Positions 3,155 to 19,740 of a stretch of 19,826 nt of DNA are shown here, piece after piece. This stretch comes from Anaerolineales bacterium (lineage in GTDB: Bacteria > Chloroflexota > Anaerolineae > Anaerolineales > UBA4823): NCBI GenBank assembly GCA_016932955.1, contig JAFGBV010000288.1, positions 1 through 19,826 on the forward strand. The letters run 5' to 3'. Every line of letters begins with the position of its first letter. Position 1 is the stretch's first letter. The notes beneath the pieces were generated by a model that was not told the origin of the DNA, did no database searches, and worked only from the letters and a program-made list of their open reading frames with translations. The position numbers were made by a program, and so were the translations under genes.

Positions 3155-6100
3155 TTATTTGTTAAGTTTTGGGAACCGCCGAACAATACGTGCCGGGGAA
3201 GGCAAGATGAGCCGTTCGCCAATCTCCATCATACCCAAGATTTTTCCCGCATCCTTAGGAGCCCCCTGATAGATATAAAGCGTAGTGCCCTTATCCGTAC
3301 TCTTGGAGTCCAAAACAGCTTGGCCTGTCAGATACCCATCCGCATCAACAGCACAACTGGTTACCTTGCCAATCACCCGCCCTCGACGGTCAACAACTGG
3401 GTCGCCCAAGTGCGCCATTCGTACTCCTTTCTCATTGAAAGTGAAGCGTACCAATTCTAGCTTTCGCACTTTTTCTCTTTGCAGATAGGCCTCGCGCCCA
3501 ACGAACCACGGCTTGTATGTTTTCACAAAGGAGCCGAAACCTGCCTCCGCCACTCCCAGATTTAACTCGCCTCCCATCTCATGCCCATAGAGCGGCAAGC
3601 CAGCCTCTGTTCGCAGAGAGTCGCGCGCGCCTAATCCACAGGGCTTTACTCCATACGATGCACCTACTTCCAGCAAGCGATTGAAAAAAGCATCAGCCTG
3701 ATCCGGATGAATAAATAACTCATATGAAAATTTTTCCCCTGTATAGCCCGTGCGTGAGATTACCAGGTCAAATCCGCCCAGAACTGCCTCGCACAATTTA
3801 GTGCGCTTAAGTTGACGAACGCGGATGTAAGTTTTCTCGTCGCATCCTAATGCCAACAAGATCTGCCGCGCTTTAGGCCCTTGCAAAGCAATGTCAACTC
3901 TCCTGTCCGCTCCTGCTGACGGGTCCTTAAGATTACGTAGGGTCGCATTACGGCCAAACACGCGCGCCGATGGTTGGTTCCGATCAACTAATACCATCCC
4001 CTCTTTCACCGCATTTAACCATGCCCAGTCCTTATCATGGTTAGCTGCATTGACCACCACCAAGTATTTCTCCTTCTCGCGGCGATAGATGATCAAATCA
4101 TCGATCACATTGGCGTCTGGGTCTAGTAAATGTGTATAACAGGATTCCCCATATGTTAGGTAGCTGGCGTCATTAGCAACCACACTGTCCAGGAATGCTG
4201 CCGCATCAGGGCCTTCCACTTGATACACACCCATATGCGCCACATCAAATAAACCAGCTCTCTGACGCACCGCCAGGTGCTCATCCATAACCGAGGTATA
4301 CCATACTGGCATCTCCCAGCCGGCAAATTCGATCATCTTAGCGCCAAGACGGCGGTGAGTTTCATACATTGGAGTATGCAAAACAACTCCACTATTCTCC
4401 GGCTGCCAAGTAAATTCCGGCAACGGTTCGCCACAAGGTTCTCCGCTCATTCCCACATAGTATGGCTTGCAGATTGCTACTGGATCACCATCCATTGGCA
4501 GTACCGGCTTCGCTTCGCTCCTTTCCACCTCTGTCAAGCCTGGGAGCTTCTTGAGCACATCTACGTCAAATGCCACATAACCATCTGACAAGTCTCGCAG
4601 CCACGCTGCGACCAAGCACGTCTTCTCCGCTGGGATAGTCAAGCGGAAGTGATAAGCATCCACACAGGTTAGAGTACCATCCACTGCCTCATTCAAGATA
4701 TGAACGCGCGTAGGCTGACTTTCCCCGGCTTGGAGGGCCTCCACCCGACTGGTTACAGCCATGCTCAAGAATAACCGCACCCGATCCCCACTAATATCTA
4801 GCACTTGCCACGCACTGCTGGACGGTTTTTGATCTAAATAATAAAAGTGGGGATAACCATGAGTTACCGGGTCATAATCAATTCCTGCCTTCTGAGCCAA
4901 ATCTCGCGCACGAAGCTTCGCTTCTTCAAAAACTCGGAAGTCCACTTTTGCCCGGCGGATCCGTCCCGATATTCCATCCCTACCGTGAGGCTTGGTTGCC
5001 AGAAGAATGTCGGCAATAATATCGGCGAGTAATGTAACCTCTGCCTCCTTAAACCCACGTTGTGTGATCCACGGGGTTCCCATGCGTATGCCCGAAGGAT
5101 CCGCGGCCGACTCATCGCCGGGAATGGTATTCCGGTTAACCACAATCCCGGCGATATCCAAGATGCGCGAAGCCATATCCCCTGATAGACCCGTGCCATC
5201 CTCCCCGATGATCGTATTGCAGGCAAGGTTCAGCAGATGGGTATTGGTGCCGCCATAAGCGATGTGCAAACCCCGTTCTTGCAATCGATCGGTTAGTACT
5301 GCGCAATTCTTAACCACCTGTTCTTGCAACCTGCAGAATTGCTCGCTTTTTGCTAACTTGAATGCAACAGCCATTCCTACATAGGAATTGACATGTGGCC
5401 CCCCTTGCTCGCCAGGAAATACCGCCCGGTCGATATCTCGTGCCAGCTTTTGGTCAGTTGTCAGGATACATGCCCCACGAGGACCGCACAATGATTTGTG
5501 CGTAGTAAATGTGATCACGTCAGCATAGCCCACCGGAGATGGGTAGACACCCGCCGCCACTAAACCCGCAACATGCGCAATATCAGCAAACAAGATCGCC
5601 CCAACAGCATCAGAGATCTCACGGAAACGTGCCCAATCAACCGCCCATGGATACGAAGAATATCCTGCAATGATGAACCGTGGTCGGTGTGCTCTTGCCA
5701 GCGCCTCAACAGCATCGTAATCAATCTGCTCTGTTTGAGAATCCACTGTATAGTGCACAGCCTGGTAAAACTTGCCAGAACGGTTGACCGGAGATCCATG
5801 GGTCAGATGCCCGCCGTGAAGCAGGTCCATGCCCATAATCGTTGCTCCTGGTTCAACCAGAGCATGGTAAACCGCATTGTTTGCCGGCGCTCCTGATAAT
5901 GCCTGTACATTCACATAGATATCATCTGGAGTAACATCACCAGTCGCGAAAAGCTCCGCACAGCGGCGGCGAGCCAACTCTTCAGCTGTATCTGCATATT
6001 CCACACCTTTGTAATACCGCCGATCCGCGTAGCGCCGAAAATGAGCTAGCCGCGCCGGATAATCGACAATTTCGTCCTCGCTCATCCACCGTGTTTCATC

Positions 6101-6289
6101 GCGCGGGTATCCTTCTGCATAAATGTTTTGGAATACAGACCCCAGTGCTTCACGAACCGCCAGAGGCGCGGTACTCTCGCTGGGAATAAGGATCAGTTTT
6201 CGATACTGGCGCTCCGCCTCCAGCGCAACCAGTTCATGAACTGCTGGATCAAGATCTGCTAAAGGGCCTCGAAATAAAAAGTCATCCAT
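3155..6289 (-). CDS. glyA/gcvT: serine hydroxymethyltransferase - glycine cleavage T protein fusion
   Basis: One 1044-aa frame carries two normally separate folate enzymes. Residues 1 to about 430 are serine hydroxymethyltransferase (serine + THF to glycine + 5,10-methylene-THF). Visible motifs are LIPSEST (34-40), QALSGAPANNAVYHAL (129-144) and FADIAHVAGLVAAG, with the PLP lysine K265 in TFTTHKSLCGPRG; FPGEQGGPH and RMGTPWITQRGF follow. Residues about 637-1030 are aminomethyltransferase (GcvT): LHTPMYETHRRLGAKMIEFAGWEMPVWY near the start, then GLFDVAHMG, ALQGPKA, ISRTGYTGEKFSYELF and LGARDSLRTEAGLPLYGHE. About 200 residues (435-635) between them match neither family clearly. The pair would either make or use 5,10-methylene-THF on one polypeptide. 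Start: ATG with CGGAG 6 nt upstream. No in-frame stop separates the halves. No other glycine-cleavage gene (P, H or L) lies nearby. Confidence 0.9.
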   Translation of the reverse strand: MDDFLFRGPLADLDPAVHELVALEAERQYRKLILIPSESTAPLAVREALGSVFQNIYAEGYPRDETRWMSEDEIVDYPARLAHFRRYADRRYYKGVEYADTAEELARRRCAELFATGDVTPDDIYVNVQALSGAPANNAVYHALVEPGATIMGMDLLHGGHLTHGSPVNRSGKFYQAVHYTVDSQTEQIDYDAVEALARAHRPRFIIAGYSSYPWAVDWARFREISDAVGAILFADIAHVAGLVAAGVYPSPVGYADVITFTTHKSLCGPRGACILTTDQKLARDIDRAVFPGEQGGPHVNSYVGMAVAFKLAKSEQFCRLQEQVVKNCAVLTDRLQERGLHIAYGGTNTHLLNLACNTIIGEDGTGLSGDMASRILDIAGIVVNRNTIPGDESAADPSGIRMGTPWITQRGFKEAEVTLLADIIADILLATKPHGRDGISGRIRRAKVDFRVFEEAKLRARDLAQKAGIDYDPVTHGYPHFYYLDQKPSSSAWQVLDISGDRVRLFLSMAVTSRVEALQAGESQPTRVHILNEAVDGTLTCVDAYHFRLTIPAEKTCLVAAWLRDLSDGYVAFDVDVLKKLPGLTEVERSEAKPVLPMDGDPVAICKPYYVGMSGEPCGEPLPEFTWQPENSGVVLHTPMYETHRRLGAKMIEFAGWEMPVWYTSVMDEHLAVRQRAGLFDVAHMGVYQVEGPDAAAFLDSVVANDASYLTYGESCYTHLLDPDANVIDDLIIYRREKEKYLVVVNAANHDKDWAWLNAVKEGMVLVDRNQPSARVFGRNATLRNLKDPSAGADRRVDIALQGPKARQILLALGCDEKTYIRVRQLKRTKLCEAVLGGFDLVISRTGYTGEKFSYELFIHPDQADAFFNRLLEVGASYGVKPCGLGARDSLRTEAGLPLYGHEMGGELNLGVAEAGFGSFVKTYKPWFVGREAYLQREKVRKLELVRFTFNEKGVRMAHLGDPVVDRRGRVIGKVTSCAVDADGYLTGQAVLDSKSTDKGTTLYIYQGAPKDAGKILGMMEIGERLILPSPARIVRRFPKLNK

Positions 6290-6482: not shown

Positions 6483-7868
6483 ATGGTTGCGTCGCAATAC
6501 CCAGGTCATTCAGATATTTTTGCTCTGCCTGTTCGCGACCGGTTTCTGCTTTATGCACCGCTGCATGCACTCAGTGCTCTTCTCAACCCCCCGGCGTTGA
6601 CTCAGTTAAGCCGCGCACTCAAAACTTCATTAAGATTGCCGCCAGGTGAGGCAGTGTCAGCCATCCTGCAGCGTCTCCGCCAGCCAGGTATCCCGACTCC
6701 CCAGCCGCCCACCGGTGCCCTCGCGCCTATTTTCCTCGGCCTCATTCTCACCCGCGGCTGCCGTATGGCTTGTCGTTATTGCGATTTCGTCCCCGCCCAT
6801 GTCACCCCCCGCATGCCCCTCGAACTGGCTCGCCAGGCTATTGATTCCTATTTTGACCTCCTCGTCAGTCAAGGCCAGCGCCATGCAGAAGTGCACTTCT
6901 TTGGCGGCGAGCCTTTCGACGCCGCAGATATCGTACACTTCAGTGTGGCATATGCCCGCCTGCGAGCCGCTGAGCGCGGCATGCATCTGAGCCTGGAGGC
7001 GGCAACAAATGGTTTTTATAGTGAGCGCCTTTGTCGCTGGATCGCATCCCAATTTGATACCATCATTCTCTCGCTGGATGGCCCAGCAGAGATCCAGGAT
7101 TCCCTGCGCCCCGACGCAGCCAGCCGCGGCACATCCAAAATCGTCGAGCGTAGCGCTCATATCTTCTCCGATAGCGACCTCACCTTCCATATCCGCGCCT
7201 GCGTCACTCAAGATACCGTCGCCCGCCTCCCTGAGATCGCCGCCTGGATTGCTGATGAATTTACACCCGACCTGGTATGCTTTGAAAGCCTTACCCCCTC
7301 ACCACGTTCGCGCCAAGCAGAGCTGAGACCGCCTGATCCCTGGCTCTTCGCCCAGGCTATCTACACTGCCAGCCGCATTCTGGATCCTTTGGGTATCCAA
7401 ACAGTGCTCTCCACAGCCAATATTCACAATTGCCAGGCAAGCTTTTGCCCCGTTGGCAAAGATGTCATCATCGTTTCCCCGGATGGCATGCTCTCTTCCT
7501 GTTACCTGCTAGAGCAAGACTGGAAATCACGCGGCCTGGATATGCGCCTGGGTCGCATCGATGGTAATGGCTTTGAGATAGATGAGTCCTCTTGTCAGCA
7601 TCTCCGCCAATTTAGCATCCATGCCAAATCGCGCTGTGTAGATTGCTTCTGCCGCTACCATTGCGCTGGTGGCTGCCATGTCAACCATCCCAGCAATGTT
7701 CCCCCGGCAACATATGATGACCTCTGTGTTCAAACTCGTCTTGTAAGTGCCGTAAACCTTCTCAAGGATATGAACCAGGCAGATCTGGTGTCTCAATTCC
7801 TGGCCGATCGATCAGCCATGGAGCGCCTCGCCCGTCAACCGACTGACAGACTGGAGGCACTGCAATGA
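6483..7868 (+). CDS. radical SAM/SPASM peptide-modifying enzyme 1
   Basis: This 461-aa protein is the first gene of the operon. Residues 1 to about 85 form an N-terminal domain without cysteines, perhaps a winged-helix leader-binding (RRE) domain. The radical SAM cluster motif follows in LTRGCRMACRYCDF (C93, C97, C100), with the SAM-contact motif FFGGEPFD further on. The C-terminal SPASM region binds auxiliary Fe-S clusters: FCPVG, then SPDGMLSSCYLLE, then CVDCFCRYHCAGGC at about 384-397, and a last Cys in LCVQTR. This architecture is that of maturases that make thioether, C-C or C-H oxidised products on ribosomal peptides (AlbA, PqqE, anaerobic sulfatase-maturase type). Start: ATG with AGGAAAG 11 nt upstream. 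It overlaps the next gene by 4 bp (ATGA). The likely substrate is the Cys-rich tail of the two exported proteins encoded downstream; this is inference from context. Confidence 0.85.
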   Translation: MVASQYPGHSDIFALPVRDRFLLYAPLHALSALLNPPALTQLSRALKTSLRLPPGEAVSAILQRLRQPGIPTPQPPTGALAPIFLGLILTRGCRMACRYCDFVPAHVTPRMPLELARQAIDSYFDLLVSQGQRHAEVHFFGGEPFDAADIVHFSVAYARLRAAERGMHLSLEAATNGFYSERLCRWIASQFDTIILSLDGPAEIQDSLRPDAASRGTSKIVERSAHIFSDSDLTFHIRACVTQDTVARLPEIAAWIADEFTPDLVCFESLTPSPRSRQAELRPPDPWLFAQAIYTASRILDPLGIQTVLSTANIHNCQASFCPVGKDVIIVSPDGMLSSCYLLEQDWKSRGLDMRLGRIDGNGFEIDESSCQHLRQFSIHAKSRCVDCFCRYHCAGGCHVNHPSNVPPATYDDLCVQTRLVSAVNLLKDMNQADLVSQFLADRSAMERLARQPTDRLEALQ

Positions 7869-8146
7869 GAGCCCAGGGCATCCGTATTCTACCTGGGATT
7901 GTCTGGGTCGAGGATCGTTCTCAGACGATCATTGTAAATGAGAATGCAGTTTCATCCCGGGTACTCACAGGCTATGAAGGCGCGCTTTGGACCTGGCTGA
8001 CACAGAGATATCCATACACCCGCCTGCTTCGGTTCAGCAGGTTGGCATTGCACTGCACCGCAACCAAAGCGCAGGAACAGCTTCTATGTACACTCCAAGA
8101 GTGGCAGCGTCTGGGGTTAGTGGAGCTGGAAGTGTCAAATGGCTAA
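7865..8146 (+). CDS. small PqqD/RRE-like recognition protein (93 aa)
   Basis: The sequence has the pattern of PqqD-like RiPP recognition elements: a beta-hairpin (IVWVEDRSQTIIVNENA), then helices (YEGALWTWLTQRYPYTRLLRF, KAQEQLLCTLQEWQRLGLVEL) ending in the typical GLVE turn. No catalytic residues are seen. RRE proteins bind the leader of a precursor and present it to the partner enzyme. The gene overlaps radical SAM 1 by 4 bp and radical SAM 2 by 8 bp (ATGGCTAA). GGAGG lies 7 nt before its ATG. Radical SAM 2 lacks the ~90-residue N-terminal domain of the other three SPASM-type enzymes, so this protein probably supplies that domain in trans. Similarity is by eye and weak at residue level; gene order makes it more likely. 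Confidence 0.6.
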   Translation: MRAQGIRILPGIVWVEDRSQTIIVNENAVSSRVLTGYEGALWTWLTQRYPYTRLLRFSRLALHCTATKAQEQLLCTLQEWQRLGLVELEVSNG

Positions 8147-9113
8147 CCTGGTCATCGCCACCCCTTGCGATATGGGCTGCGCCTACTGCTTTGCCGCAGA
8201 GTTGCGGCGCAATGGAGACCCTCCCTTCATCTCACTTGCAGATTTCGACTCCCGGCTAAACTTCTTGCAGCGCTCGGGCATCCCCCAGGCGCGCTTCATC
8301 GGAGGTGAGCCTTCGCTCCACCCACATTTCCCCGAACTGGTGCAGCGTGCTCGTCAGGCTGGGCTATCTGTGATCGTCTTCTCGCATGGGCTGATGCCGC
8401 CCACTGCATTGGAATGCCTCATGGCGCTACCGCCCGAAGCCTGCACAGTGCTGGTGAACATGAACGCATCCAATTTGCCTACCGGCCCCACACATCAGGA
8501 GCACGCCGCCCGAATCGAGACACTCCGCCTCTTGGGGTCACGCGCCTTGCCCGGCTACACCGTCACCTCCCCCGCTTTCGATCTCACCTTCCTCCTCTCA
8601 GCCATCCAGCAGAGCGCCTGTCAGCAGAAGATCCGTCTGGGGCTTGCCAATCCCATCCTAAAAGGCAGCAACCATTTCCTCCACCCCCGCCAGTACCGTT
8701 TCGTTGGCCAGAAGATTGCATCATTTGCCCCCATCGCTGCGGAAGCCGGCGTGCGTCTGGAATTCGACTGCGGTTTTGTCCGCTGCATGTTCGACAATCG
8801 TGAGATGGATACGCTCATCCGGGCTCATGTTGATATAGGTTTTCATTGTAGCCCCATTGTAGAGATCACCACATCCGGGAATGCCTTGCATTGCTTTGCC
8901 CTTGGCAGTCAGTTCGCTCTCCAACTTGAGCCGAGGGAGATGTGCGCATGCTTGGCAGCTGATCTACGCACTGAGATAGTACAGCGTAGCGCGCCCTACC
9001 GCCTCGCAGGTATTTACCGCGAATGCTCAAACTGTATTTTCAAGGAGCGCGACGAATGCTCCGGTGGCTGTTTATCGCATACCTTGCGCCGCTTTCAACG
9101 CGTAGAACAGTGA
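8139..9113 (+). CDS. radical SAM enzyme 2, short form with SPASM-like C-terminus
   Basis: This 324-aa protein begins almost at its Fe-S motif: IATPCDMGCAYCFA gives C10, C14 and C17. FIGGEPSLHP matches the GGEP SAM-binding motif. The C-terminal part has further cysteines suited to auxiliary clusters: CSPI, LHCFALG, MCACL, and CSNCIFKERDECSGGC at about 296-311. It is shorter than the 451-461 aa of the other radical SAM proteins here, mainly because the N-terminal domain is absent. The ATG overlaps the end of the 93-aa gene in another frame, so the two are probably translated together and act as one unit. It presumably modifies the same substrates as the other enzymes. The reaction type cannot be read from sequence. 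Confidence 0.82.
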   Translation: MANLVIATPCDMGCAYCFAAELRRNGDPPFISLADFDSRLNFLQRSGIPQARFIGGEPSLHPHFPELVQRARQAGLSVIVFSHGLMPPTALECLMALPPEACTVLVNMNASNLPTGPTHQEHAARIETLRLLGSRALPGYTVTSPAFDLTFLLSAIQQSACQQKIRLGLANPILKGSNHFLHPRQYRFVGQKIASFAPIAAEAGVRLEFDCGFVRCMFDNREMDTLIRAHVDIGFHCSPIVEITTSGNALHCFALGSQFALQLEPREMCACLAADLRTEIVQRSAPYRLAGIYRECSNCIFKERDECSGGCLSHTLRRFQRVEQ

Positions 9114-9135
9114 ACAATGTCGAACGGAGAATCTG

Positions 9136-10719
9136 ATGAATCAAGGCGATGAAGAAGAACCCAACATTCCCACAGGTGATGCCAGCGAAGCGCCTGAAGT
9201 GTATTCCGTGGGCAAAGATGGCGCCACGAAACCCAAACTTACCCGCCGCAACTTCGTCGAGCTCGCCGCTGCCTCCGCCGCTGCCCTGGCAGTAGGCGGT
9301 ACAGTCGCAGCAGGGCAAGCCCAGAAGGAACAGTCATTGCTGGGGGCCCTTCCTGCAACAGGTGTTTACCTCTACGCTGCGCCCGGTCTTGGGCAAAAAA
9401 TACTAGAGGCCTTCCAAGAAGGTAACTTGGTGCTCTTTCTTGGGCGTAACCAAGACAACACCTGGAGCCAGGTCAAGAGTGCTTCAGGTAACATCGGTTG
9501 GGTGCAGAACCAGTTCCTGGATTTTACTCATCCAGTGTACCAGGAGGATACTGATGGCAAACTGGCAGCCACCGCACCAACGTTAATCAACCTCTACTTC
9601 GTGGATGCACAAAATGGCTGGGCGGTGGGAGAAGGCGGCGCAGTGGTGCGCGTAATGGGCGAAGGCCAATATTATGACGCGCAGGTTTCGAACACCTCCG
9701 AGAGTCTCTATGCGGTCTTTTTCACCGATGTGGAAAACGGTTGGGCAGTGGGCAATAATGGCGCGGTGGTTCATACCCTGGATGGCGGTAGCCATTGGGA
9801 GGTGCAGACATCGAACACAACATGGAGATTGGAATGTGTCTTCTTCACAGATAACAAACATGGCTGGGCAGCCGGTGGTAGAAGCGTTGTGCGCACCATC
9901 GATGGCGGTCATAATTGGGTCGAGATAAGTAGTGTGGTGCCTTATGGGTTGATTATTCGGAATATCCAATTCTTCGACGCCCTCAACGGCGTGCTCGTGG
10001 CCAAGGGAGATTATATTACCGAGGGCGATGCACAGGTTATGTTCACGCTAGATGGCGGTGATACCTGGGCACTTGCAACTAGTGATAACGATTTGAGTTT
10101 TGTTTTTGCCTATGCGCTGCACTTCTACAGCCCAACGCTGGGCATTGTAGTGGGTCAACTCGGCAGCACGCTTGTCTTCAAATCCACCGACCGCGGCCAT
10201 TCCTGGCGTTCCATCCCTTGCGGCTCTGGTTTTCAATACTATCGATTCTTCAATGTACAGATGTTGGACAATGAATACGGTTTTGCAGCGGGTGATGATG
10301 GACTGATGCACACTAAGGATGGCGGCGAGACATGGCAATTCATATTTTCTAGCATTTCTTGCCGAAACGTGTTCTTTGCCTCGCGCCAGGTTGGCTACCT
10401 GGTGAAGTGGAATAACACGGGGGTGTTCAAGAGCACAGATGGTGGCTTAACTTTTTTGTCGATCCCGGACGTCCCGCCGCCCACAGCTACGCCCACACCG
10501 CACCTGATTTATCTGCCGATCGTGCTCCGGCAGTCGACCCCTACGCCTACCTCTACATCCACCCCCTCGCCGACTTATGGTCATTCTCCCACGCCCACCA
10601 CCACCCCTTGCAGTTGCGACGGGTATTGCGGTTGCGATGGTGACTGCGGCTGCGACGGCGACTGCATTTGTGATGATATCTGCACCTGCGATACGATTCA
10701 CTACTGGCATCCAAACTAA
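9136..10719 (+). CDS. exported substrate A: Tat signal, SH3-like, YCF48 propeller, stalk, Cys-hexad tail
   Basis: In this 527-aa protein, residues 1-31 are acidic and include APEVYSVGKDG, which is nearly identical in its paralogue. A Tat signal follows (TRRNF at 36-40, a hydrophobic Ala-rich core at 42-57, possible cleavage near GQA-Q). A bacterial SH3-like domain covers about 67-130 (LVLFLGR, WSQVKS, GNIGWVQNQFL). About 150-450 form seven YCF48/BNR-type blades (NGWAVG...DGGxxW). A Pro/Thr stalk follows with YLPIVLRQ inside. The last 36 residues (492-527) are five C-x-C-D-x-x hexads plus HYWHPN. Ten of those 36 residues are Cys. The folded propeller should bind a protein or glycan outside the cell. 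The tail, beside five radical SAM genes, is the likely modified part. Start: ATG with GGAG 5 nt upstream. Confidence 0.85.
   Translation: MNQGDEEEPNIPTGDASEAPEVYSVGKDGATKPKLTRRNFVELAAASAAALAVGGTVAAGQAQKEQSLLGALPATGVYLYAAPGLGQKILEAFQEGNLVLFLGRNQDNTWSQVKSASGNIGWVQNQFLDFTHPVYQEDTDGKLAATAPTLINLYFVDAQNGWAVGEGGAVVRVMGEGQYYDAQVSNTSESLYAVFFTDVENGWAVGNNGAVVHTLDGGSHWEVQTSNTTWRLECVFFTDNKHGWAAGGRSVVRTIDGGHNWVEISSVVPYGLIIRNIQFFDALNGVLVAKGDYITEGDAQVMFTLDGGDTWALATSDNDLSFVFAYALHFYSPTLGIVVGQLGSTLVFKSTDRGHSWRSIPCGSGFQYYRFFNVQMLDNEYGFAAGDDGLMHTKDGGETWQFIFSSISCRNVFFASRQVGYLVKWNNTGVFKSTDGGLTFLSIPDVPPPTATPTPHLIYLPIVLRQSTPTPTSTSTPSPTYGHSPTPTTTPCSCDGYCGCDGDCGCDGDCICDDICTCDTIHYWHPN
10609..10716 (+). repeat. 18-bp tandem repeats coding the Cys-hexad tail of substrate A
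   Basis: The DNA codes for five hexads in register: CSCDGY, CGCDGD, CGCDGD, CICDDI, CTCDTI, then HYWHPN. Cys is at positions 1 and 3 and Asp at position 4 of every hexad. Third codon positions vary, so the pattern is held by selection on protein rather than by a fresh DNA duplication. Confidence 0.95.
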
Positions 10720-10732
10720 CATTACTGGAAAC

Positions 10733-10760
10733 GATCGATGATTACCTTCTCCCATCGATC
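10733..10760 (+). other. hairpin between the two substrate genes
   Basis: GATCGATG (10733-10740) pairs perfectly with CATCGATC (10753-10760) across a 12-nt loop. No T run follows, so it is not a standard terminator. It lies in the only spacer longer than 25 bp inside the operon (80 bp) and may stabilise the upstream mRNA or mark a processing site that sets substrate levels apart from enzyme levels. Confidence 0.5.
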
Positions 10761-10799
10761 CTTCTCGGTTCACGATTTGCAACTCTTAGGAGATTACCC

Positions 10800-12353
10800 A
10801 TGACAATCGAAGATAATGAATCACAGCAACTACCCGCAGAAGACTCTGGCGATGCGCCGGAGGTATATTCAGTGAGCAAAGAAGGGGTCAAAAAGCCAAA
10901 ACTCACCCGCCGTAACTTCGTCGAGATCGCTGCCGCCTCCGCTGCTGCCCTGGCGGTAGGCGGTGCCGCCGCTGCGGGGAGAGCCCAGAAGGATCAGTCC
11001 CTCCTGGGTGCCATCCCCGCTACCGGCGTATACCTCTTCGCCTCGCCTGGTCTGGGTCAGAAAATACTCGAAGCCTTCCACGAAGGCGACCTGGTCCTCT
11101 TCCTCGGCCGCAATCACCAGAACACCTGGAGCCAGGTCAAGAGTGCCTCCGGTAATATCGGCTGGGTTCAAAACCAGTTCCTCGATTTTACCCACCCCGT
11201 ATATCAAAAGGATGCAGAGGTCGATACGAAAGCGACTGCCCTGACACTGAATGCCCTTTACTTTGTCGATGCCCAAAATGGTTGGGGGGTTGGCGAGAGC
11301 GGTGCTATCGCTCGTGTGATGAATGATGGAGAATATTATGATGCTCAGGTATCTAACACCGCCGAGAACCTCAATGCAGTATTTTTCACCGATGCCAACA
11401 ATGGTTGGGCGGTCGGGAATAACGGGACCATCGTCCACACCAACGACGGCGGCAGCACCTGGACTCCCCAAACATCCAATACGCTCCAGCACCTCATCTG
11501 TGTCTTCTTCTTGGATAACAACAACGGTTGGGCAGCCGGAGGAACCAAGGTAGTACAAACATCTGACGGTGGTCAAAACTGGACTGAATTGCCAGATGCC
11601 GTTTCCTCCTCAACCATCATTCAAGATATCCATTTCTTTGATGCCAATAACGGTGTTCTGGTTGCTTACCAGTATGGCGTCGGCGAATTGGTATTTACTA
11701 CCGATGGCGGCAGCACCTGGACGCCAGCAACCTGTGATATTGAGGATGAATTTGAATTTGGTTACATGCAGGCGCTGCACTTTATCACTCCCTTATTGGG
11801 CATTGCTGCAGGTGGATTCGTCGCCCCTTCCTTCTTCAAATCCACTGACAGTGGTCACACCTGGACCTTTATCCCTTGCGATGTTGCCTACAATCCTATC
11901 TTCGATGTGCAGATGGTGGACACGGAATACGGCTTTGCGCTGGGTACAACAGGGCTGATGCAAACCACAAATGGCGCAGGAACTTGGGAAGAGTTATTCG
12001 ACGCCTGGGACTTTAAGGATATGTGTTTTATCTCACGTCAGGTGGGCTACGTCATCACAAGCTCTGACTTGGGTATGTTCAAGAGCACAGATGGCGGTCA
12101 CACCTGGTTACCGGTTCCAGATGCTCCTCCACCCACAGCTACACCTACGCCTCACCTGTATTACTTACCAATAATCGTCAGGCAGCCCACCCCCACGCCT
12201 ACAAACACAAACACCCCCACACCCACTGCCACAGCTACTATCTGCACCTGTGATGCCGTCTGTGGCTGCGACGGGCATTGTGGTTGTGATGGCGACTGCC
12301 TCTGCGACAAGATCTGCACATGTGATACCATCCATTATTGGTATCCAAATTAG
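10800..12353 (+). CDS. exported substrate B: paralogue of A with the same Cys-hexad tail
   Basis: This 517-aa protein shares its domain order with substrate A. It has an acidic start with APEVYSVSKEG (19-29), Tat motif TRRNF (36-40), an Ala-rich core, a SH3-like domain (about 67-130), and seven propeller blades with NGWAVG and DGGSTW signatures. A Pro/Thr stalk with YLPIIVRQ follows, and residues 482-517 are five C-x-C-D-x-x hexads plus HYWYPN. Identity to A is very high from about residue 19 to 135 and again in the stalk and tail, and clearly lower in the propeller. This suggests conserved processing and export signals around a diversifying binding head. Start: ATG with TAGGAGA 7 nt upstream. 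The stop is only 2 bp before the ATG of radical SAM 3. Alternative roles for the tail are metal binding or disulfide crosslinking without enzymatic change. Confidence 0.85.
   Translation: MTIEDNESQQLPAEDSGDAPEVYSVSKEGVKKPKLTRRNFVEIAAASAAALAVGGAAAAGRAQKDQSLLGAIPATGVYLFASPGLGQKILEAFHEGDLVLFLGRNHQNTWSQVKSASGNIGWVQNQFLDFTHPVYQKDAEVDTKATALTLNALYFVDAQNGWGVGESGAIARVMNDGEYYDAQVSNTAENLNAVFFTDANNGWAVGNNGTIVHTNDGGSTWTPQTSNTLQHLICVFFLDNNNGWAAGGTKVVQTSDGGQNWTELPDAVSSSTIIQDIHFFDANNGVLVAYQYGVGELVFTTDGGSTWTPATCDIEDEFEFGYMQALHFITPLLGIAAGGFVAPSFFKSTDSGHTWTFIPCDVAYNPIFDVQMVDTEYGFALGTTGLMQTTNGAGTWEELFDAWDFKDMCFISRQVGYVITSSDLGMFKSTDGGHTWLPVPDAPPPTATPTPHLYYLPIIVRQPTPTPTNTNTPTPTATATICTCDAVCGCDGHCGCDGDCLCDKICTCDTIHYWYPN
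12243..12350 (+). repeat. 18-bp tandem repeats coding the Cys-hexad tail of substrate B
   Basis: The five hexads are CTCDAV, CGCDGH, CGCDGD, CLCDKI and CTCDTI, followed by HYWYPN. The number of hexads, all ten Cys and all five Asp are the same as in substrate A. Only x positions change. Confidence 0.95.
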
Positions 12354-12355
12354 CC

Positions 12356-13735
12356 ATGATTGATCTTCGCACCATCACGATCACAGGTGAGCCAGGGAAG
12401 TTTATCATCTTTCGCCCTCTGCTTGGGCTTGCCTTTGTCGGCAACCGAGCAATGGCAGACCTGGCTTCAAGACTAGCCACTGGCGGAGCCCCTGCCTGGG
12501 AAAGCCAGCCCCCTGGTGACGCGCTGGACTTCCTTCGCCAGATCGGCTTTGACCAACCTGATCCACCCACGCCGCAGCCACCACTGGTAACCGCGACAAA
12601 TGGCTTCAATCCTACAACTGCTGTGCTGCTGATGACAAACCAGTGCCACTTACGCTGTATCTACTGCTATGCCGATGCCGGGACACGTCCTCCACTGACC
12701 ATCTCCCCACAGGTTGGGTTCGCAGCCATCGAAACTGTCTGTCAGAACGCGATCCAGGGTGGACAAGAATCCTTCAGCCTTTCCTTCCACGGTGGCGGTG
12801 AGCCAACCTTCGCCTGGCATGTGTTGCGTGAATGTGTGGAATACGCCCGTTCTAGACCGCTTCCTGTACGCATCAGCCTCACCTCGAATGGCGTATGGTC
12901 GCCGGCAATGACAGCCTGGATCATACAGAATATCGACAGCATCAGCTTTTCCTTCGACGGCACACCCGCAACGCAGGATCGTCAACGCATCTTCCCCTCT
13001 GGGCAGGGCTCCTCCCTAGTGGTGCTGCGGAGCTTGCGCGTCCTCGATGAGCACGATTTCCCATATAGCATCCGTATGACTGTTCTGCCACCCTGGGAGA
13101 GCTTTGTTGATGATGTGCGTTACCTTTGCCAGCAAACTGGTTGCCGGGCAATCCAAGTTGAGCCAGCCTTTAATACCATCCGCGGCATGCACGCCCCCCC
13201 CAGTGATGAGCAATGGCAGGGCTTTGCCGAGACTTTCCTCGAAGCGCATGAAACCGCGCGTCAATGCGGTAAACGCCTACGCTATTCAGGCGCACGTATC
13301 GAGACAGTCACCGCAGCTTTCTGCTCTGCTCCCACCAACGCCCTGATTGTCAATCCCCTGGGCGACCTGGTGACTTGTTACCAGGTTGACAACCGCGAAC
13401 ATCCCCTCGCAAGCATCTCGGTGATTGGGTGCTTTTCAGAAAGCAATCTAAATGTAGATAATACCGCCCGTCAGCACCTGGTTGGGTTAATTGCCGAACG
13501 GCGCGCAGCCTGTCAGGATTGTTTTTGTTACTGGTCCTGTGCTGGCGATTGCTACTCGCGTAATTTTCACCCCGGACCCGATGGTCACCTGATTTTCAGC
13601 CAGCGTTGCGCAATCAACCGTGCCATTACCGAACGCCTGCTGTTAGAAGCTATTGCCGAGAGCAGAGGCGCCTGGCGGCGCGGCTACTCTCTGCCGCCAA
13701 GCGCCGATGTACTTTCTTTGGAGATGGGTGCATAA
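12356..13735 (+). CDS. radical SAM/SPASM peptide-modifying enzyme 3
   Basis: I start this 459-aa protein at the ATG 2 bp after the substrate B stop. A TTG at 12338 would add six residues but lies inside substrate B and has no better ribosome site. Residues 1 to about 85 are an N-terminal winged-helix-like domain (FIIFRPLLGLAFVGNRAMADL, ALDFLRQIGF). The Fe-S motif is LLMTNQCHLRCIYCYAD (C97, C101, C104), and FHGGGEPTF is the SAM motif. The SPASM C-terminus has FCSAP, NPLGDLVTCYQV and CQDCFCYWSCAGDC at about 385-398, then QRCAINR. Its closest resemblance in the window is to radical SAM 4, and both have HGGGEP where number 1 has GGEP. It overlaps the next gene by 1 bp. No clear Shine-Dalgarno is seen, so it probably depends on translational coupling to substrate B. 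Confidence 0.85.
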   Translation: MIDLRTITITGEPGKFIIFRPLLGLAFVGNRAMADLASRLATGGAPAWESQPPGDALDFLRQIGFDQPDPPTPQPPLVTATNGFNPTTAVLLMTNQCHLRCIYCYADAGTRPPLTISPQVGFAAIETVCQNAIQGGQESFSLSFHGGGEPTFAWHVLRECVEYARSRPLPVRISLTSNGVWSPAMTAWIIQNIDSISFSFDGTPATQDRQRIFPSGQGSSLVVLRSLRVLDEHDFPYSIRMTVLPPWESFVDDVRYLCQQTGCRAIQVEPAFNTIRGMHAPPSDEQWQGFAETFLEAHETARQCGKRLRYSGARIETVTAAFCSAPTNALIVNPLGDLVTCYQVDNREHPLASISVIGCFSESNLNVDNTARQHLVGLIAERRAACQDCFCYWSCAGDCYSRNFHPGPDGHLIFSQRCAINRAITERLLLEAIAESRGAWRRGYSLPPSADVLSLEMGA

Positions 13736-14256
13736 TGGATTTGACGGAGTTTTTCATCACCTTTCCTCGTAAAAAAGTCGCTCCCCAGGTGACCCGCCGT
13801 GAGCTTGTCTCTGCAGCTCTGTCTGAATTGGAAGGAGCATCTGCTGCCAGGGAGGGCCGGCGCGCCTTACGCCTCTCGGATTTGGGAGAGCTTCCCGATG
13901 AGATACTGAGCACTCTGATTCCCCAGCATTCACCCGATCGGCCCGCCTGGGAGCAGGATGGGCAACTATATATCCAGCCGCCTCAACGCCAGAAACCTCA
14001 AGCCCTGTTACCCCTCGAGCCAGCAATTCTCTTCTGTTTTCGCCAGATAGATGGGTTACAGACCCTGGGGCAGATCGCCGAGAGTTTGGCTAATTTGATG
14101 GACTGGGAACCAGCAAAAGCTTTCGCCTATCTGCGCGGCTTTTTCCTCACTCTGGTCTTTTACCAGGCATGCATTCCACGTAATCCAACCACCACTCGCC
14201 AAACAACCGGCGACTCTCTCGCAAACCACCAGGAGCAAGAGAGAGCAGATGTTTAG
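13735..14256 (+). CDS. PqqD-like recognition protein with N-terminal extension (173 aa)
   Basis: I chose the ATG at 13735, which overlaps the radical SAM 3 stop by 1 bp and has GGAG 11 nt upstream; the longer open frame from 13606 lies wholly inside radical SAM 3. Residues about 94-147 match the PqqD-like pattern well: FCFRQIDGLQTLGQIAESLA, an aromatic helix start, then KAFAYLRGFFLTLVFYQACI. PqqD-like proteins bind precursor leaders for their radical SAM partner. Residues 1-90 are of unknown type (VTRRELVSAALSELEG, many Arg and Glu), and the C-terminal ~25 residues are polar and probably disordered. It is sandwiched between radical SAM 3 and 4, mirroring the position of the 93-aa protein between 1 and 2. 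Confidence 0.65.
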   Translation: MDLTEFFITFPRKKVAPQVTRRELVSAALSELEGASAAREGRRALRLSDLGELPDEILSTLIPQHSPDRPAWEQDGQLYIQPPQRQKPQALLPLEPAILFCFRQIDGLQTLGQIAESLANLMDWEPAKAFAYLRGFFLTLVFYQACIPRNPTTTRQTTGDSLANHQEQERADV

Positions 14257-15634
14257 CCCTCTCACCTCCATATCGCTCCCCATATATCGTTGGGATATTG
14301 CGAGTAGCAATAGCAATGCTCTGAATAGTAGCAGCCTTTTTTACGCACCGGGATATCTCGTGGTTGCCAGGAAGCAGGATGCCAACCGTTTCTCTGATCT
14401 CTTGAGCAATCCTGATAGCCAGCCAGCTCCCCGTCTAGCAATTGACCTGCTGACTCATGCCCGCGCTGCCTTGCAAGAATGGCAAGCATTGTTACACCAA
14501 CCCTATAACCCCGTTTGCCTGACTCTCTATCTGAGTAATGCCTGTAATTTATCCTGCCCATACTGCTATTCTGAGCCGGTGCAGCAACCAGCCAAGCGTA
14601 TCAGCTTGCCTGCTGTCGCTTCCGCAGCACGCCTAGTTGCCGAGAATTGCAGGGAAACCGGAACACCATTCAATGTAGTCTTTCACGGGGGCGGTGAGCC
14701 ATCTATGGAAATGGATTTACTGGAACAATGTCTCGATGTGGCTGAAGAAACCGCGATTGAACACGGAGTAGGTATCTTCCGCTACATTGCCACCAATGGC
14801 GTGATGCCCGCCATACATGCCACATGGTTAAGCCAGCGGTTTGATATGATCGGCCTATCCTGTGATGGGCCTCCGGATATCCAGAATTCCCAGCGTCCCC
14901 TGCGCTCTGCAGACGGTTCCCAACCCGCAGAAAGCAGTTCAACTCAAGTAGAGAGTACAGCGCAGATTATCCACCAGCATAAAAAACCGCTACATGTTCG
15001 CACAACAATCACACCAGATAGCGTGAAACGCCAACAGGAGATTGTGGACTATATCTGCAACAATCTCTGCCCACAGGAAATCCATGTAGAAGCTCAATAC
15101 GCCACCTCGCCAGGGGCCTCTGCTTTCCAAGCCACACAGGTTGATGAGTTCTTGACTTATTTTATGGAAGGACGCCACCAAGCCCGCCTCGCTGGCATTC
15201 CCTACCGCATGTCGGTCAGCCGCGTGGGGTTAATCCACGGCCCCTATTGCAATCCATTACGCCAGGTATTGCAGTTGGTTCCCGGCGATTTGGCCTCAGC
15301 TTGTTTTCGTGCTGCCATGCCGCATCAACTCCTGGCAGACCTCCAAAATATCGGCGCCTACGATCTCCCGTCAGAGAGATTCTTCATTGAACCCACCAAT
15401 GCCGCTTTATTCTGCTCAGCCTTATCCAGCTTGCCAATCAAATGCAGTGATTGCTTCAACCGCTTTCATTGCACGTATGGCTGCCCAGATTATTGTCTAC
15501 TTCAGAACAAGGGCGACGCCGACTTCCGTTGCCTGCTTGCCCAGAAACTAACCATAACATTGCTGTTGGAGCGCGCATGTGATCTGCTAAGACGTGGAGG
15601 GGCAATCAGTGGCGGGAAGGTGGATCTTTGGTAA
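14249..15634 (+). CDS. radical SAM/SPASM peptide-modifying enzyme 4
   Basis: In this 461-aa protein, residues 1 to about 88 form an N-terminal domain (FYAPGYLVVARKQDANRF, LLTHARAALQEWQALL) that may bind the substrate leader. The Fe-S motif is LYLSNACNLSCPYCYSE (C99, C103, C106), with FHGGGEPSM as SAM motif and MIGLSCDGPPDIQNSQRP downstream, as in SPASM peptide maturases. The C-terminal cysteines are CNPL, LASACFRA, FCSALS, and CSDCFNRFHCTYGC at about 399-412, then FRCLLAQ. It starts with an 8-bp overlap (ATGTTTAG) on the PqqD-like gene and ends 7 bp into the next gene. It probably acts on the exported substrates A and B; the reaction is unknown. Confidence 0.85.
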   Translation: MFSPLTSISLPIYRWDIASSNSNALNSSSLFYAPGYLVVARKQDANRFSDLLSNPDSQPAPRLAIDLLTHARAALQEWQALLHQPYNPVCLTLYLSNACNLSCPYCYSEPVQQPAKRISLPAVASAARLVAENCRETGTPFNVVFHGGGEPSMEMDLLEQCLDVAEETAIEHGVGIFRYIATNGVMPAIHATWLSQRFDMIGLSCDGPPDIQNSQRPLRSADGSQPAESSSTQVESTAQIIHQHKKPLHVRTTITPDSVKRQQEIVDYICNNLCPQEIHVEAQYATSPGASAFQATQVDEFLTYFMEGRHQARLAGIPYRMSVSRVGLIHGPYCNPLRQVLQLVPGDLASACFRAAMPHQLLADLQNIGAYDLPSERFFIEPTNAALFCSALSSLPIKCSDCFNRFHCTYGCPDYCLLQNKGDADFRCLLAQKLTITLLLERACDLLRRGGAISGGKVDLW

Positions 15635-16983
15635 CAACCACCCAACTCGAGGCCTTTAATTCCTTTTTCCATCCGTTAACCAGCAGGCTGGAGGTTGAAG
15701 CAATCCGCGCCCAGTGGCAGGCGCTCGGGGAGCATTATGATGTCGAGCGATGGAGTCTACCGCTGCCGGTTTGGAAGCAGCGCTCTTTCGACGACTCGCC
15801 CACACAGGCATGGAACAATTTATGCCACGAGCTAGCCACTGCTGACCTCGACCATCCCCTTTGCATTTACTTACATGTGCCTTTTTGCTCCAGTAAGTGT
15901 GGCTTCTGCGATAGCTACTCTTTCCGCCTCGCGTCGCATAGTGACGAGCACTGCGAGAAATACACCAACCGTTTATCTGCTGAGATGGCATTATGGTCAG
16001 AGCAGGGATGTTTGAGCCAGCGACCGGTTTCTTCGGTACATTTCGGTGGCGGTACACCAGCCTTTCTAGGTGCAGAACGCCTGTCACGGCTCATTGATTC
16101 TTGCCATGCGCGATTTGCCGTCGACGCAGAAACAGAATGGGCCTTGGAAACCACAGTCAAGTCATTACGTGACGGAATGCTTGTGGCTTTGCACCAAATG
16201 GGCTTCCGTCGCCTCCACTTAGGAGTTCAAAGTCTTGAACCCAGTGTAAGAAAGATCATTGGTCGTCGTTGCCCTCCTCACGAAGCTCTAGAGATCATTA
16301 CCGCTGCTCGTTCGTTGGGTTGGGTAGTGAGCGTCGATTTGATCTGCGGGCTACCCGGACAAACGCCAGAAGGCTTTATTAAAGGTATACGGGCTCTCCT
16401 CGATGCCGGCGTAGATGGCATATCTATGTACGAGTTGCTCATCTTTCCCCAAAACCGTCGTTGGGCACAGAGATATGGCTTGTTGGATCGTAGCCACATC
16501 CCAAACTACTGGATGTTTCTGGCAGGTGCACAGCTACTAGAGCATGCTGGGATGGGAAAAAACCTGTTTAACCATTGGGCAGGGAAACGCGACGAGAATA
16601 TCTATTTCACATTTCCCTTGCGTGGCGAAGCCTGCCTCGCGCTGGGATCAATCGGCGATGGTGTGTTCGGAGATTATCATTACCGCCATTATGGCTATGC
16701 GGAATACCTGCAAGCCACCGATCGCGGCCTGCCTGGCCTGGAAGGAGGCCTGCGACGCTCAGCTTTCGAGAACTTACTCCATCCCATCATCACATTACTA
16801 CTCTCCGGCAAGATGCCTGCAGCGGTGGTAATCCCGCTGAATAACAAATGCAAAGCACTCTTTTCCCGTTGGATAGAGTGTGCTCTAATGCAGCAGGATG
16901 GGAACGGTGGGTTAACGATGACCGCCAGCGGCGCCTGGTTTGCCGGGGACATGGTGAGGGAATTAATGGATTGGCTTAGTTAA
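15628..16983 (+). CDS. HemN/HemW-like radical SAM protein (candidate class C methyltransferase)
   Basis: This 451-aa protein starts with TTG, supported by AAGGTGGA 4 nt upstream and by overlap with radical SAM 4. Motifs are those of the HemN/HemW/NosN superfamily: LHVPFCSSKCGFCDSY (C87, C91, C94), VHFGGGTPAFL, ETTVKSL, RRLHLGVQSLEPSVRKIIGR, and DLICGLPGQTPEGF. Family members do radical chemistry on porphyrin precursors (HemN), carry heme (HemW), or methylate sp2 carbons in natural products (class C, such as NosN and TbtI). Setting, at the end of a peptide-modification operon, favours a tailoring or methyl-transfer step over heme synthesis. A heme-related role cannot be excluded, as no porphyrin genes lie here to settle it. 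The gene ends 8 bp before the integrated element and has no terminator. Confidence 0.8.
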   Translation: MVTTTQLEAFNSFFHPLTSRLEVEAIRAQWQALGEHYDVERWSLPLPVWKQRSFDDSPTQAWNNLCHELATADLDHPLCIYLHVPFCSSKCGFCDSYSFRLASHSDEHCEKYTNRLSAEMALWSEQGCLSQRPVSSVHFGGGTPAFLGAERLSRLIDSCHARFAVDAETEWALETTVKSLRDGMLVALHQMGFRRLHLGVQSLEPSVRKIIGRRCPPHEALEIITAARSLGWVVSVDLICGLPGQTPEGFIKGIRALLDAGVDGISMYELLIFPQNRRWAQRYGLLDRSHIPNYWMFLAGAQLLEHAGMGKNLFNHWAGKRDENIYFTFPLRGEACLALGSIGDGVFGDYHYRHYGYAEYLQATDRGLPGLEGGLRRSAFENLLHPIITLLLSGKMPAAVVIPLNNKCKALFSRWIECALMQQDGNGGLTMTASGAWFAGDMVRELMDWLS

Positions 16984-16991
16984 AACAAAAA

Positions 16992-17026
16992 TGGGCGGAA
17001 CAGGGCTCGAACCTGCGACCTCCTCT
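16992..17026. repeat. att site, left copy (orphan 3' end of tRNA-Val)
   Basis: All 35 bases are identical to 19741-19775. It covers the discriminator base, acceptor 3' strand, T arm, variable loop and the 3' side of the anticodon stem. Identity stops at the anticodon loop. It lacks the 5' half, so it is no functional tRNA. Confidence 0.95.
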
Positions 17027-18157: not shown

Positions 18158-18604
18158 ATGCGAAAACCCCGAATACCCCGTGAAGTACTGATAAAGCTAT
18201 CCAGGCTATTGAATATGCGATACAAGCCCAGTGAAATTGCAGAGGAAATCGGGGTTGATGTGTCCACCATATACCGAGCATACATCCCAGCTGGATGTCC
18301 CATCGAGCGCGATAGCAAAGGGCGGATCTGGATTATAGGAACTGCTTTTCGTGAATGGTCAGTGCAATACCATACCGAGCGTAAAGAGAACAGCAAACCG
18401 ACTCCTCTTGAACCTGGCTTTGCATGGTGCTTGAAGTGTCGAGGTCCAGCCAAGATGCTGAACATCAAACCCAGAAAACAAACCAGATACCATGTGATGT
18501 ATTCCGGTTTATGCTCAGTATGTGGGGGTAAAGTGAACCGAGCTGCTAGACCTGGAGAGGGAATAGATTGCGAGATGCCGAATAGGAAATCGAGAAAACC
18601 ATGA
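18158..18604 (+). CDS. HTH - zinc-ribbon DNA-binding protein next to integrase
   Basis: This 148-aa protein has a resolvase/Hin-like helix-turn-helix at about 22-41 (YKPSEIAEEIGVDVSTIYRAY), followed by a basic linker. A four-cysteine zinc ribbon comprises C91 and C94 (WCLKCRG) and C119 and C122 (LCSVCGG). Basic tails lie at both ends. Its ATG is 70 bp after the 119-aa gene, with a poor ribosome site. Its stop overlaps the integrase start (ATGA), so the two are translated together. A role as recombination directionality factor or integrase accessory protein is plausible from this coupling but unproven. Confidence 0.72.
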   Translation: MRKPRIPREVLIKLSRLLNMRYKPSEIAEEIGVDVSTIYRAYIPAGCPIERDSKGRIWIIGTAFREWSVQYHTERKENSKPTPLEPGFAWCLKCRGPAKMLNIKPRKQTRYHVMYSGLCSVCGGKVNRAARPGEGIDCEMPNRKSRKP

Positions 18605-19707: not shown

Positions 19708-19740
19708 ATCTCACGGTGAATGTCTCAATGCAAATAATAG

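What the first reader, a model, noticed from the sequence alone, without database searches (positions are those of the whole stretch)
6483..16983. Nine-gene operon pairing five radical SAM proteins with two Tat-exported propeller proteins that end in Cys-rich repeat tails
Seen: nine consecutive genes, mostly overlapping; four radical SAM proteins with SPASM-like C-termini, one HemN-like protein, two PqqD/RRE-like proteins, and two paralogous Tat proteins with a 36-residue Cys-hexad tail. Known: SPASM enzymes and PqqD-like proteins work on ribosomally made peptides. Inferred: a RiPP-like pathway in which the modified peptide is the tail of a large folded surface protein, not a small free peptide. 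I do not know a described system with this set. No dedicated protease or transporter is present, which fits a product that stays attached and leaves by Tat.
Basis: partly seen in the sequence, partly recalled or inferred. Interest (0 to 1): 0.95.

Follow-up and report, generated by a model that had tools for sequence, protein, structure and literature searches.

The report
Radical-enzyme-modified tails on exported proteins
A bacterial operon, found also in a small set of Chloroflexota, pairs five radical enzymes with exported proteins of different folds that share one start motif and one cysteine-rich C-terminal tail, and the enzymes likely build unusual chemical bonds into that tail before export, which would be a new way to decorate folded surface proteins.

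Summary
Nine co-directional genes (6483-16983) encode four SPASM/twitch-type radical SAM (rSAM) proteins, one HemN-like rSAM, two RRE-fold proteins and two Tat-signal proteins ending in five C-x-C-D-x-x hexads plus HYW(H/Y)PN. No listed rSAM family match reaches its curated cut-off. Twelve other genomes carry the system; 10 hold all seven companion genes. The carrier slot holds different folds (YCF48 propeller, SH3b, NBR1-Ig, WD40), yet every complete carrier keeps a P-x-V-(Y/F)-x-V motif before the Tat arginines and a Cys tail ending in HYW(Y/H)P(N/C). Among 396 genomes of one class, tail and strong g6 matches occur in the same 10. In the 12 genomes, full leader and tail matches lie only beside operon genes. 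So the tail is very probably the substrate. The chemistry is inferred: RRE proteins bind the leader, SPASM enzymes set thioether-like links in the Cys repeats, the HemN-like enzyme tailors HYW, and Tat exports the folded, modified protein. It works like an rSAM RiPP pathway whose core is a transferable tag on folded proteins. No description was found in the papers searched. No modification has been observed.

The parts
6483..7868 (+). g1: radical SAM/SPASM protein, 461 aa
   Evidence: PF04055; nearest NCBIfam PapB 95.7 bits, cut-off 340; orthologues in 11 of the 12 other genomes, none found in G197; nearest solved structure 5wgg E 2e-33
7865..8146 (+). g2: stand-alone RRE (PqqD-like) protein, 93 aa
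   Evidence: PF05402 in 5 of 10 aligned g2 proteins; model pLDDT 91.9, TM 0.85 to TbiB1 with leader peptide
8139..9113 (+). g3: shorter radical SAM protein, 324 aa, SPASM/twitch-like cysteines
   Evidence: PF04055; invariant CX3CX2C and C-terminal Cys in the 8 aligned sequences
9136..10719 (+). g4: carrier protein 1: leader motif, Tat signal, SH3b, YCF48-like propeller, PT-rich linker, Cys tail, 527 aa
   Evidence: PF14870, SH3_3; TIGR01409 TAT signal 16.9 bits against cut-off 16.7
9193..9210 (+). leader motif PEVYSV of g4 (Tat arginines at 9244-9249)
   Evidence: P-x-V-(Y/F)-x-V in all 13 complete carriers read, 10-11 residues before the Tat arginines; full leader matches only in operon carriers
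10609..10716 (+). 36-residue Cys tail of g4: five CxCDxx hexads plus HYWHPN
   Evidence: sequence; 124 of 125 tail proteins examined end YW(Y/H)P(N/D/C)
10800..12353 (+). g5: carrier protein 2, paralogue of g4, 517 aa
   Evidence: PF14870; second carrier also seen in G287 and G651
10857..10874 (+). leader motif PEVYSV of g5 (Tat arginines at 10908-10913)
   Evidence: as for g4
12243..12350 (+). 36-residue Cys tail of g5: five CxCDxx hexads plus HYWYPN
   Evidence: sequence; homology search
12356..13735 (+). g6: radical SAM/SPASM protein, 459 aa (ATG 12356; my calls used 12362 on)
   Evidence: PF04055; nearest PapB 108.3 bits, cut-off 340; 54-57% identical orthologues in four Chloroflexota MAGs
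13735..14256 (+). g7: protein with C-terminal RRE-like winged-helix domain, 173 aa
   Evidence: profile's only three PDB matches up to E 10 are PqqD, E 0.14-0.72; model matches TfuB1, TbiB1, PqqD
14249..15634 (+). g8: radical SAM/SPASM protein, 461 aa
   Evidence: PF04055; nearest PapB 68 bits; in 11 of the 12 other genomes, not found in G216
15628..16983 (+). g9: HemN/HutW-like radical SAM protein, 451 aa (TTG start)
   Evidence: TIGR04107 HutW 208.6 bits, cut-off 400; PDB HemN 1olt E 1e-39 and class C methylase NocN E 1e-24; no orthologue found in G216

Best explanation
The operon most likely encodes a RiPP-like maturation pathway in which two RRE proteins and five radical SAM enzymes would modify the Cys-rich, HYW-ended C-terminal tail of the operon's own Tat-signal carrier proteins before these are exported. 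Shown here: the gene set, its recurrence in 12 other genomes, swapped carrier folds with a constant leader motif and tail, and predicted RRE folds for g2 and g7. Inferred: the RREs bind the P-x-V-(Y/F)-x-V leader that precedes the Tat arginines, as lasso and PQQ RREs bind their leaders. Inferred: g1, g6 and g8, nearest to Cys-to-side-chain thioether synthases (PapB, SCIFF/CteB, QhpD), install thioether links in the C-x-C-(D/V) repeats. Inferred: g9, a HemN-family enzyme, and perhaps g3 act on the aromatic HYW(Y/H)P(N/D/C) end by one-carbon transfer or C-C linkage. The folded, modified protein would then leave by Tat, about half of the family probably as lipoproteins, and display a rigid modified tail on the cell surface.
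For: All seven companion genes (g1, g2, g3, g6-g9) in 10 of 12 genomes: five on one contig (G001, G004, G018, G282, G381), five in two pieces (G002, G003, G186, G287, G651). In G651 the operon is broken by IS21-like genes, yet g8-g9 survive at the other copy. Tail profile: 10 of 396 class genomes, the same 10 whose g6 match exceeds 500 bits. Leader profile in the 12 genomes: 13 full matches (E 3.5e-14 or better), all operon carriers; the other matches (6e-5 or worse) begin at model position 7 or later, behind the motif's Pro. The profile was built from 11 carriers, so 9 of the 13 match by construction and the informative result is that no other gene does; G197's carrier lacks its N-terminus. 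Tail profile in the same genomes: all 14 carriers hit, nothing else below E 1e-3. Carrier folds differ. No precursor-sized + strand ORF lies in the operon gaps. 124 of 125 tail proteins examined end YW(Y/H)P(N/D/C). On metagenome contigs 11 of 124 tail-contig lengths equal one of 119 g6-contig lengths (shift control mean 0.9, maximum 4). PapB accepts Cys-Xn-Asp with n 0-6 (PMC9413430, abstract), which fits CxCD.
Against: No modification has been observed. No listed rSAM match reaches a curated family cut-off, so each reaction is a guess from neighbours. The residue after CxC is Val about as often as Asp (256 against 237), so a Cys-Asp link cannot be general. Two WD40 carriers (G287, G651) have tails with only four Cys and no CxCD, so the repeats are not essential. 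The gene set is not uniform: in G216 the gene after g6 is a different radical SAM protein cut by the contig end, and no g8 or g9 orthologue was found in its assembly; in G197 no g1 was found, its contig beginning in the carrier. Distant g6 relatives occur without a tail: the spirochaete G005 (35% identity; 0 tail matches in 247 Spirochaetota, a search without a positive control), and G187, G012 and G1002.
Confidence: 0.72

Rival explanations
1. The tail is modified as above but is then cut off after export, so the product is a free peptide and the folded domain is only a delivery carrier.
For: PT-rich linkers precede the tail in the window carriers and would be easy to cleave; carriers are interchangeable; RiPP products are usually released (established knowledge).
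Against: No protease or peptide transporter among the nine genes; of the genomes read, only G216 and G018 carry an added gene of the U32-peptidase-like kind, at weak score in G216 and by resemblance in G018. SH3b, NBR1-Ig and propeller domains make sense as retained anchors or binding modules.
Confidence: 0.15
2. The enzymes turn the aromatic HYW end into a redox or metal-binding cofactor, in the manner of cysteine tryptophylquinone or PQQ, and the Cys repeats are its electron or metal relay on the outer face.
For: HYW(Y/H)P is the least variable part of the tail and remains in WD40 carriers that lack the repeats; quinohemoprotein maturase QhpD is among the top five family matches of g1, g6 and g8; Tat is the usual route for folded cofactor proteins (established knowledge).
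Against: No dehydrogenase, cytochrome or electron-transfer gene among the nine; QhpD scores (80.4, 80.8, 60.6 bits) are far below its cut-off of 453.
Confidence: 0.15
3. The tail is an ordinary disulfide- or metal-binding tag, and the radical SAM enzymes make an unrelated small molecule or act on a peptide encoded elsewhere.
For: Dense Cys pairs suit metal binding; no chemistry has been measured; distant g6 relatives exist without a detected tail.
Against: Tail-operon co-occurrence in 396 genomes, carrier genes always beside operon genes, a leader motif found only on the carriers and two RRE proteins are hard to explain without a peptide substrate; no other precursor gene fits in the gaps.
Confidence: 0.06

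Closest known systems
Quinohemoprotein amine dehydrogenase gamma subunit with QhpD
   Same: A radical SAM/SPASM enzyme cross-links Cys to Asp/Glu in a protein (PMC11002830 and PMC8326336, passages) that is later exported (recalled).
   Different: One SPASM enzyme and one fixed protein; the cross-linked chain is the enzyme subunit itself, not a tag moved among unrelated folds; QhpD cut-off not met.
Freyrasin (PapA/PapB) and SCIFF/thermocellin (CteB) ranthipeptides
   Same: Best family match of g1, g6 and g8 is PapB; 5wgg, CteB by recall, is the nearest solved structure for all three, for g8 level with a sulfatase-maturating enzyme; repeated Cys-Xn-Asp in the window tails.
   Different: Small precursors and a single maturase (recalled), no folded carrier; scores 68-108 bits against a cut-off of 340.
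Triceptides (three-residue cyclophanes)
   Same: Ring residue at i and Asn/Asp at i+2 (Tyr-C3 to Asp, His-C2 linkages; PMC11002830, passages) resembles the Y/H-P-N/D end.
   Different: 17 of 125 tails end in Cys; cyclophane maturase models score far below cut-off.
HemN-like class C radical SAM methylases (NosN/NocN, TbtI, ChuW/HutW)
   Same: g9 matches HutW, HemN and NocN and keeps the CX3CX2C motif and a Tyr six residues before it (taken as the HemN Tyr56 of PMC12871812, by recall of the alignment).
   Different: Below the HutW cut-off (208.6 against 400); substrate here would be a protein tail.

Membership tests
rSAM RiPP pathway | Ribosomal substrate with leader and core beside its maturases | tested here: met
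   Leader motif and tail in all 13 complete carriers read, beside operon genes in 12 genomes; leader and core are separated by a Tat signal and folded domains
rSAM RiPP pathway | RRE (PqqD-like) leader-binding protein | tested here: met
rSAM RiPP pathway | Post-translational modification of the core | not testable with these tools
   Needs mass spectrometry
rSAM RiPP pathway | Leader removal or product release by a protease | tested here: inconclusive
   No protease gene in the window operon; a U32-like gene in G216 at weak score
Ranthipeptide (PapB/SCIFF) | Maturase passes the curated PapB or SCIFF model cut-off | tested here: not met
   PapB 95.7, 108.3 and 68 bits against 340; SCIFF 93.1, 84.4 and 46.6 against 425
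Ranthipeptide (PapB/SCIFF) | Cys-Xn-Asp/Glu motifs in the core | tested here: met
   Window tails; but two of 13 complete carriers have no CxCD and Val is as frequent as Asp after CxC in the 125 tails examined
Ranthipeptide (PapB/SCIFF) | Non-alpha-carbon thioether link | not testable with these tools
   Needs MS/NMR
Quinohemoprotein amine dehydrogenase maturation | QhpD model cut-off | tested here: not met
   TIGR03906 80.4, 80.8, 60.6 bits against 453
Triceptide | Maturase passes a cyclophane-maturase model | tested here: not met
   AmcB, YhhB, FxsB and GrrM, where listed, all far below cut-off
HutW/ChuW | TIGR04107 cut-off | tested here: not met
   208.6 bits against 400; the wider HemN family is supported
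Tat substrate | Twin-arginine signal at the N-terminus | tested here: met
   RRxF in all 13 complete carriers; TIGR01409 passed by g4 (16.9 against 16.7), not listed for g5; Pfam TAT_signal below its cut-off for both

The most novel reading that the evidence does not exclude
A new class of protein modification: one multi-enzyme radical SAM assembly recognises a leader placed before a Tat signal and writes a dense array of cross-links, with tailored aromatics, into a C-terminal tag that evolution attaches to unrelated folded proteins, producing covalently armoured tails on the bacterial surface.
Probability: 0.45. Interest if true: 0.93.

Novelty: new variant of a known kind. Interest (0 to 1): 0.83.

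Why it matters
The radical SAM RiPP pathways that I know act on small peptides, and the radical SAM enzymes that act on proteins act on one fixed protein each (established knowledge, from recall). Here five radical enzymes and two recognition proteins go with a leader and tail that sit on at least four unrelated folds. If confirmed, it would show that a RiPP-type core can be a transferable tag on folded, Tat-exported proteins. It would also give a tool to install stable cross-links at a chosen protein's C-terminus, and explain the 322 tail proteins found.

Tried and rejected
Sulfatase- or QHNDH-type maturation as full membership: rejected on model cut-offs. A hidden small precursor peptide in the operon: of + strand ORFs of 20 aa or more, the only one in a gap is 21 aa at 10738-10803, without Cys. 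A tail defined by CxCD hexads: rejected, since WD40 carriers of G287 and G651 lack them. Spread to Spirochaetota: one g6-like gene at a contig end in G005 and no tail in 247 genomes; the tool warns that this empty answer has no positive control. A dedicated promoter: promoter-like sites in the region are not above shuffles (11 against 7.8 +/- 2.5). Literature: ten searches listed no paper on such a system; I looked at the listings and at passages or the abstract of four papers, and only open-licence PMC papers are held, so absence in print is not shown. The g7 structure comparison gave a higher Z (10.5) to a mycobacterial methyltransferase (8hkr) than to any RRE; I take it for a shared winged-helix arrangement, and the RRE reading of g7 rests mainly.
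Full report
OBSERVATION. Nine genes run on the + strand from 6483 to 16983 with overlaps or short gaps. g1, g3, g6 and g8 carry the radical SAM core motif CX3CX2C and C-terminal SPASM or twitch cysteines; g9 is HemN/HutW-like. None of the listed NCBIfam radical SAM matches reaches its curated cut-off; for g1, g6 and g8 the 25 best of 43, 50 and 53 were listed. The nearest for these three is PapB, at 95.7, 108.3 and 68 bits against 340. g4 and g5 are paralogues with a Tat signal, an SH3b domain, a YCF48-like propeller, a PT-rich linker and a 36-residue tail of five C-x-C-D-x-x hexads plus HYW(H/Y)PN. No listed Pfam or NCBIfam match has its best stretch in the tail. Of the 36 tail codons, 10 are identical, 19 differ synonymously and 7 change the residue; dN is 0.11 in the tail, 0.28 in the SH3b-propeller part and 0.23 in the linker. 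The tail is therefore under selection as protein.

CONSERVATION. A scan of genome contigs with g6 gave six loci: four Chloroflexota MAGs at 55-57% identity, one spirochaete at 37% and one uncultured bacterium at 24% (one search gives 54-55% and 35% over the whole alignment). A g6 profile then matched 12 of 396 genomes of the same class at E 1e-30 or better, with at most 4 candidates scored per genome. Ten score above 500 bits; two (G187 290 bits, G012 108 bits) are relatives without the operon on the stretches read. Where the neighbourhood is contiguous the order is g1-g2-g3-carrier-g6-g7-g8-g9, apart from inserted genes and second carriers. Counting G002 and G651, found, 12 genomes carry the system. 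All seven companion genes are present in 10 of 12: five on one contig (G001, G004, G018, G282, G381) and five in two pieces (G002, G003, G186, G287, G651). In G651 the two halves each abut the same pair of IS21-like genes (named by eye). Two genomes are incomplete. G197's contig begins in the carrier and no g1 was found elsewhere. In G216, g1, g2, g3, carrier and g6 are followed by a different radical SAM gene cut by the contig end, and no g8 or g9 orthologue was found. So g8-g9 may be absent or replaced there. The pairwise protein distances of the seven genes correlate across genomes (Spearman 0.48-0.89), as expected if they are inherited together, though shared descent alone also gives such values.

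CARRIER SWAPPING. The carrier slot holds SH3b proteins with PT-rich stretches, NBR1-Ig proteins, WD40 propellers, YCF48 propellers and one protein without a Pfam match. G287 has a second carrier between g8 and g9, and G651 has two between g3 and g6. All 13 complete carriers (two of the window, 11 of other genomes) keep P-x-V-(Y/F)-x-V 10-11 residues before the Tat arginines and end in HYW(Y/H)P(N/C). Ten of the 13 have a C-G-x-x-(I/L)-P-x-G-x-x-C-x-C-(N/D)-C module before the repeats; the window carriers and that of G018 do not. The last 45 residues hold 4 to 12 Cys, and two WD40 carriers have no CxCD at all.

CO-OCCURRENCE. A tail profile (15 tails) matched 10 of the same 396 genomes, exactly the 10 with a strong g6; at most 16 candidates per genome were scored. 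In a phylum-wide draw of 400 it matched 3 (G001, G197, G651); g6 was not run on that draw. In the whole held class of G651 it matched 1 of 158, and a g6 match above 500 bits was found in that one only (G1002 has a 114-bit relative and no tail). In the 12 genomes the tail profile found all 14 carriers and nothing else below E 1e-3; three weak matches lie at E 0.07-0.21. The leader profile found 13 full matches, all carriers (G197's carrier lacks its N-terminus in the assembly), while all others begin at model position 7 or later and cover little more than the Tat region. Both profiles were built partly from these same carriers (9 of the 13 leaders), so what counts is that nothing else matches. 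Genomes in these draws are related, so I give no probability for the overlap.

WIDER FAMILY. A search of 5.8 billion proteins with the window tail found five others up to E 1.2, all Tat-type carriers. A search with the L001 tail found 322, of which 120 were listed. Of the 125 sequences in hand (119 new, five, and the window's g5), 124 end YW(Y/H)P(N/D/C), 116 of them with H before; P0113 does not. Of 105 with RR in the first 90 residues, 103 carry the leader motif in a loosened form. After C-x-C the residue is Val 256, Asp 237, Asn 153, Glu 27 times. Of 108 with a Tat-like RRx(F/L/M/I), 57 have a lipobox-like site; the window carriers do not. A g6 profile search gave 503 relatives, 120 listed. 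Of 124 tail contigs, 11 have exactly the length of one of 119 g6 contigs, against 0.9 on average (maximum 4) when lengths are shifted by 1-60 bases; equal length is a hint, not proof, of one contig.

MECHANISM. Shown: operon, carrier swapping, constant leader and tail, RRE folds by prediction. Inferred: RRE-leader binding, the modifications, and their order before Tat export. PapB makes Cys-Asp/Glu thioethers and accepts Cys-Xn-Asp with n = 0-6 (PMC9413430, abstract read); the window hexads offer n = 0 and n = 2. Val at the same place in relatives means that a Cys-Asp link cannot be the whole story; a link to a side-chain carbon that Asp and Val share is possible. The Y/H-P-N/D end resembles three-residue cyclophane sites, where Tyr C3 or His C2 is joined to a beta carbon two residues on (PMC11002830, passages read), but 17 of 125 tails end in Cys. 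HemN-family class C enzymes act on sp2 carbons (PMC12871812, passages read), so g9 on the aromatic HYW is the natural guess. The G216 tail ends in Cys and that genome is the one without g8 and g9: a lead from one case. Tat export of folded proteins agrees with modification in the cytoplasm, where radical SAM enzymes work (established knowledge).

JUDGEMENT. It works like a radical SAM RiPP pathway with RRE-guided leader recognition. It is not a member of the ranthipeptide, triceptide, QHNDH or HutW families by the tests made. The distinctive feature is that the core is a tag moved among folded proteins, with the leader in front of the Tat signal and the core at the far end. The literature searches named under Tried and rejected listed no description; they cover open-licence papers only.

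Noticed in passing
window 16992-17026 and 19741-19775: A 35-bp exact direct repeat of the tRNA-Val 3' end (tRNA at 19740-19814, minus) flanks a phage-type integrase (18601-19707) and small HTH genes: probably a 2.75-kb integrated element directly behind the operon's last stop codon.
   Followed up: partly
L038:7270-8055 and the C-terminal parts of P0139, P0149, P0168, P0200: A domain of about 260 aa follows g6 in G381 and looks fused to g6 in four metagenome proteins (matched by eye); no Pfam match for the G381 gene or for that part of P0149. It could be a further tailoring enzyme.
   Followed up: partly
L040:1-785 (G216, minus strand): In place of g7 a different radical SAM gene, cut by the contig end, follows g6; no g8 or g9 orthologue was found in this genome, whose tail ends HYWYPC.
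   Followed up: partly
L040:3312-4385, L044:8190-9128 and L044:9068-10540: A U32-peptidase-like gene (weak PF01136 in L040) sits between g3 and the carrier in G216, with a similar gene, by eye, in G018; G018 also has a Ser/Thr-kinase-like gene there, by eye.
   Followed up: partly
L066:13531-15848 and L106:3840-6157: IS21-like gene pairs (named by eye) split the operon of G651; g8-g9 now lie about 70 kb away next to the second copy.
   Followed up: yes
window 3155-6289, minus strand: A 1044-aa fusion of serine hydroxymethyltransferase and an aminomethyltransferase (GCV_T) domain.
   Followed up: no
L005:9782-11152 (G005, spirochaete): A g6-like radical SAM gene 35% identical to g6 stands at a contig end, in a genome without any detected tail; its substrate is unknown.
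   Followed up: partly
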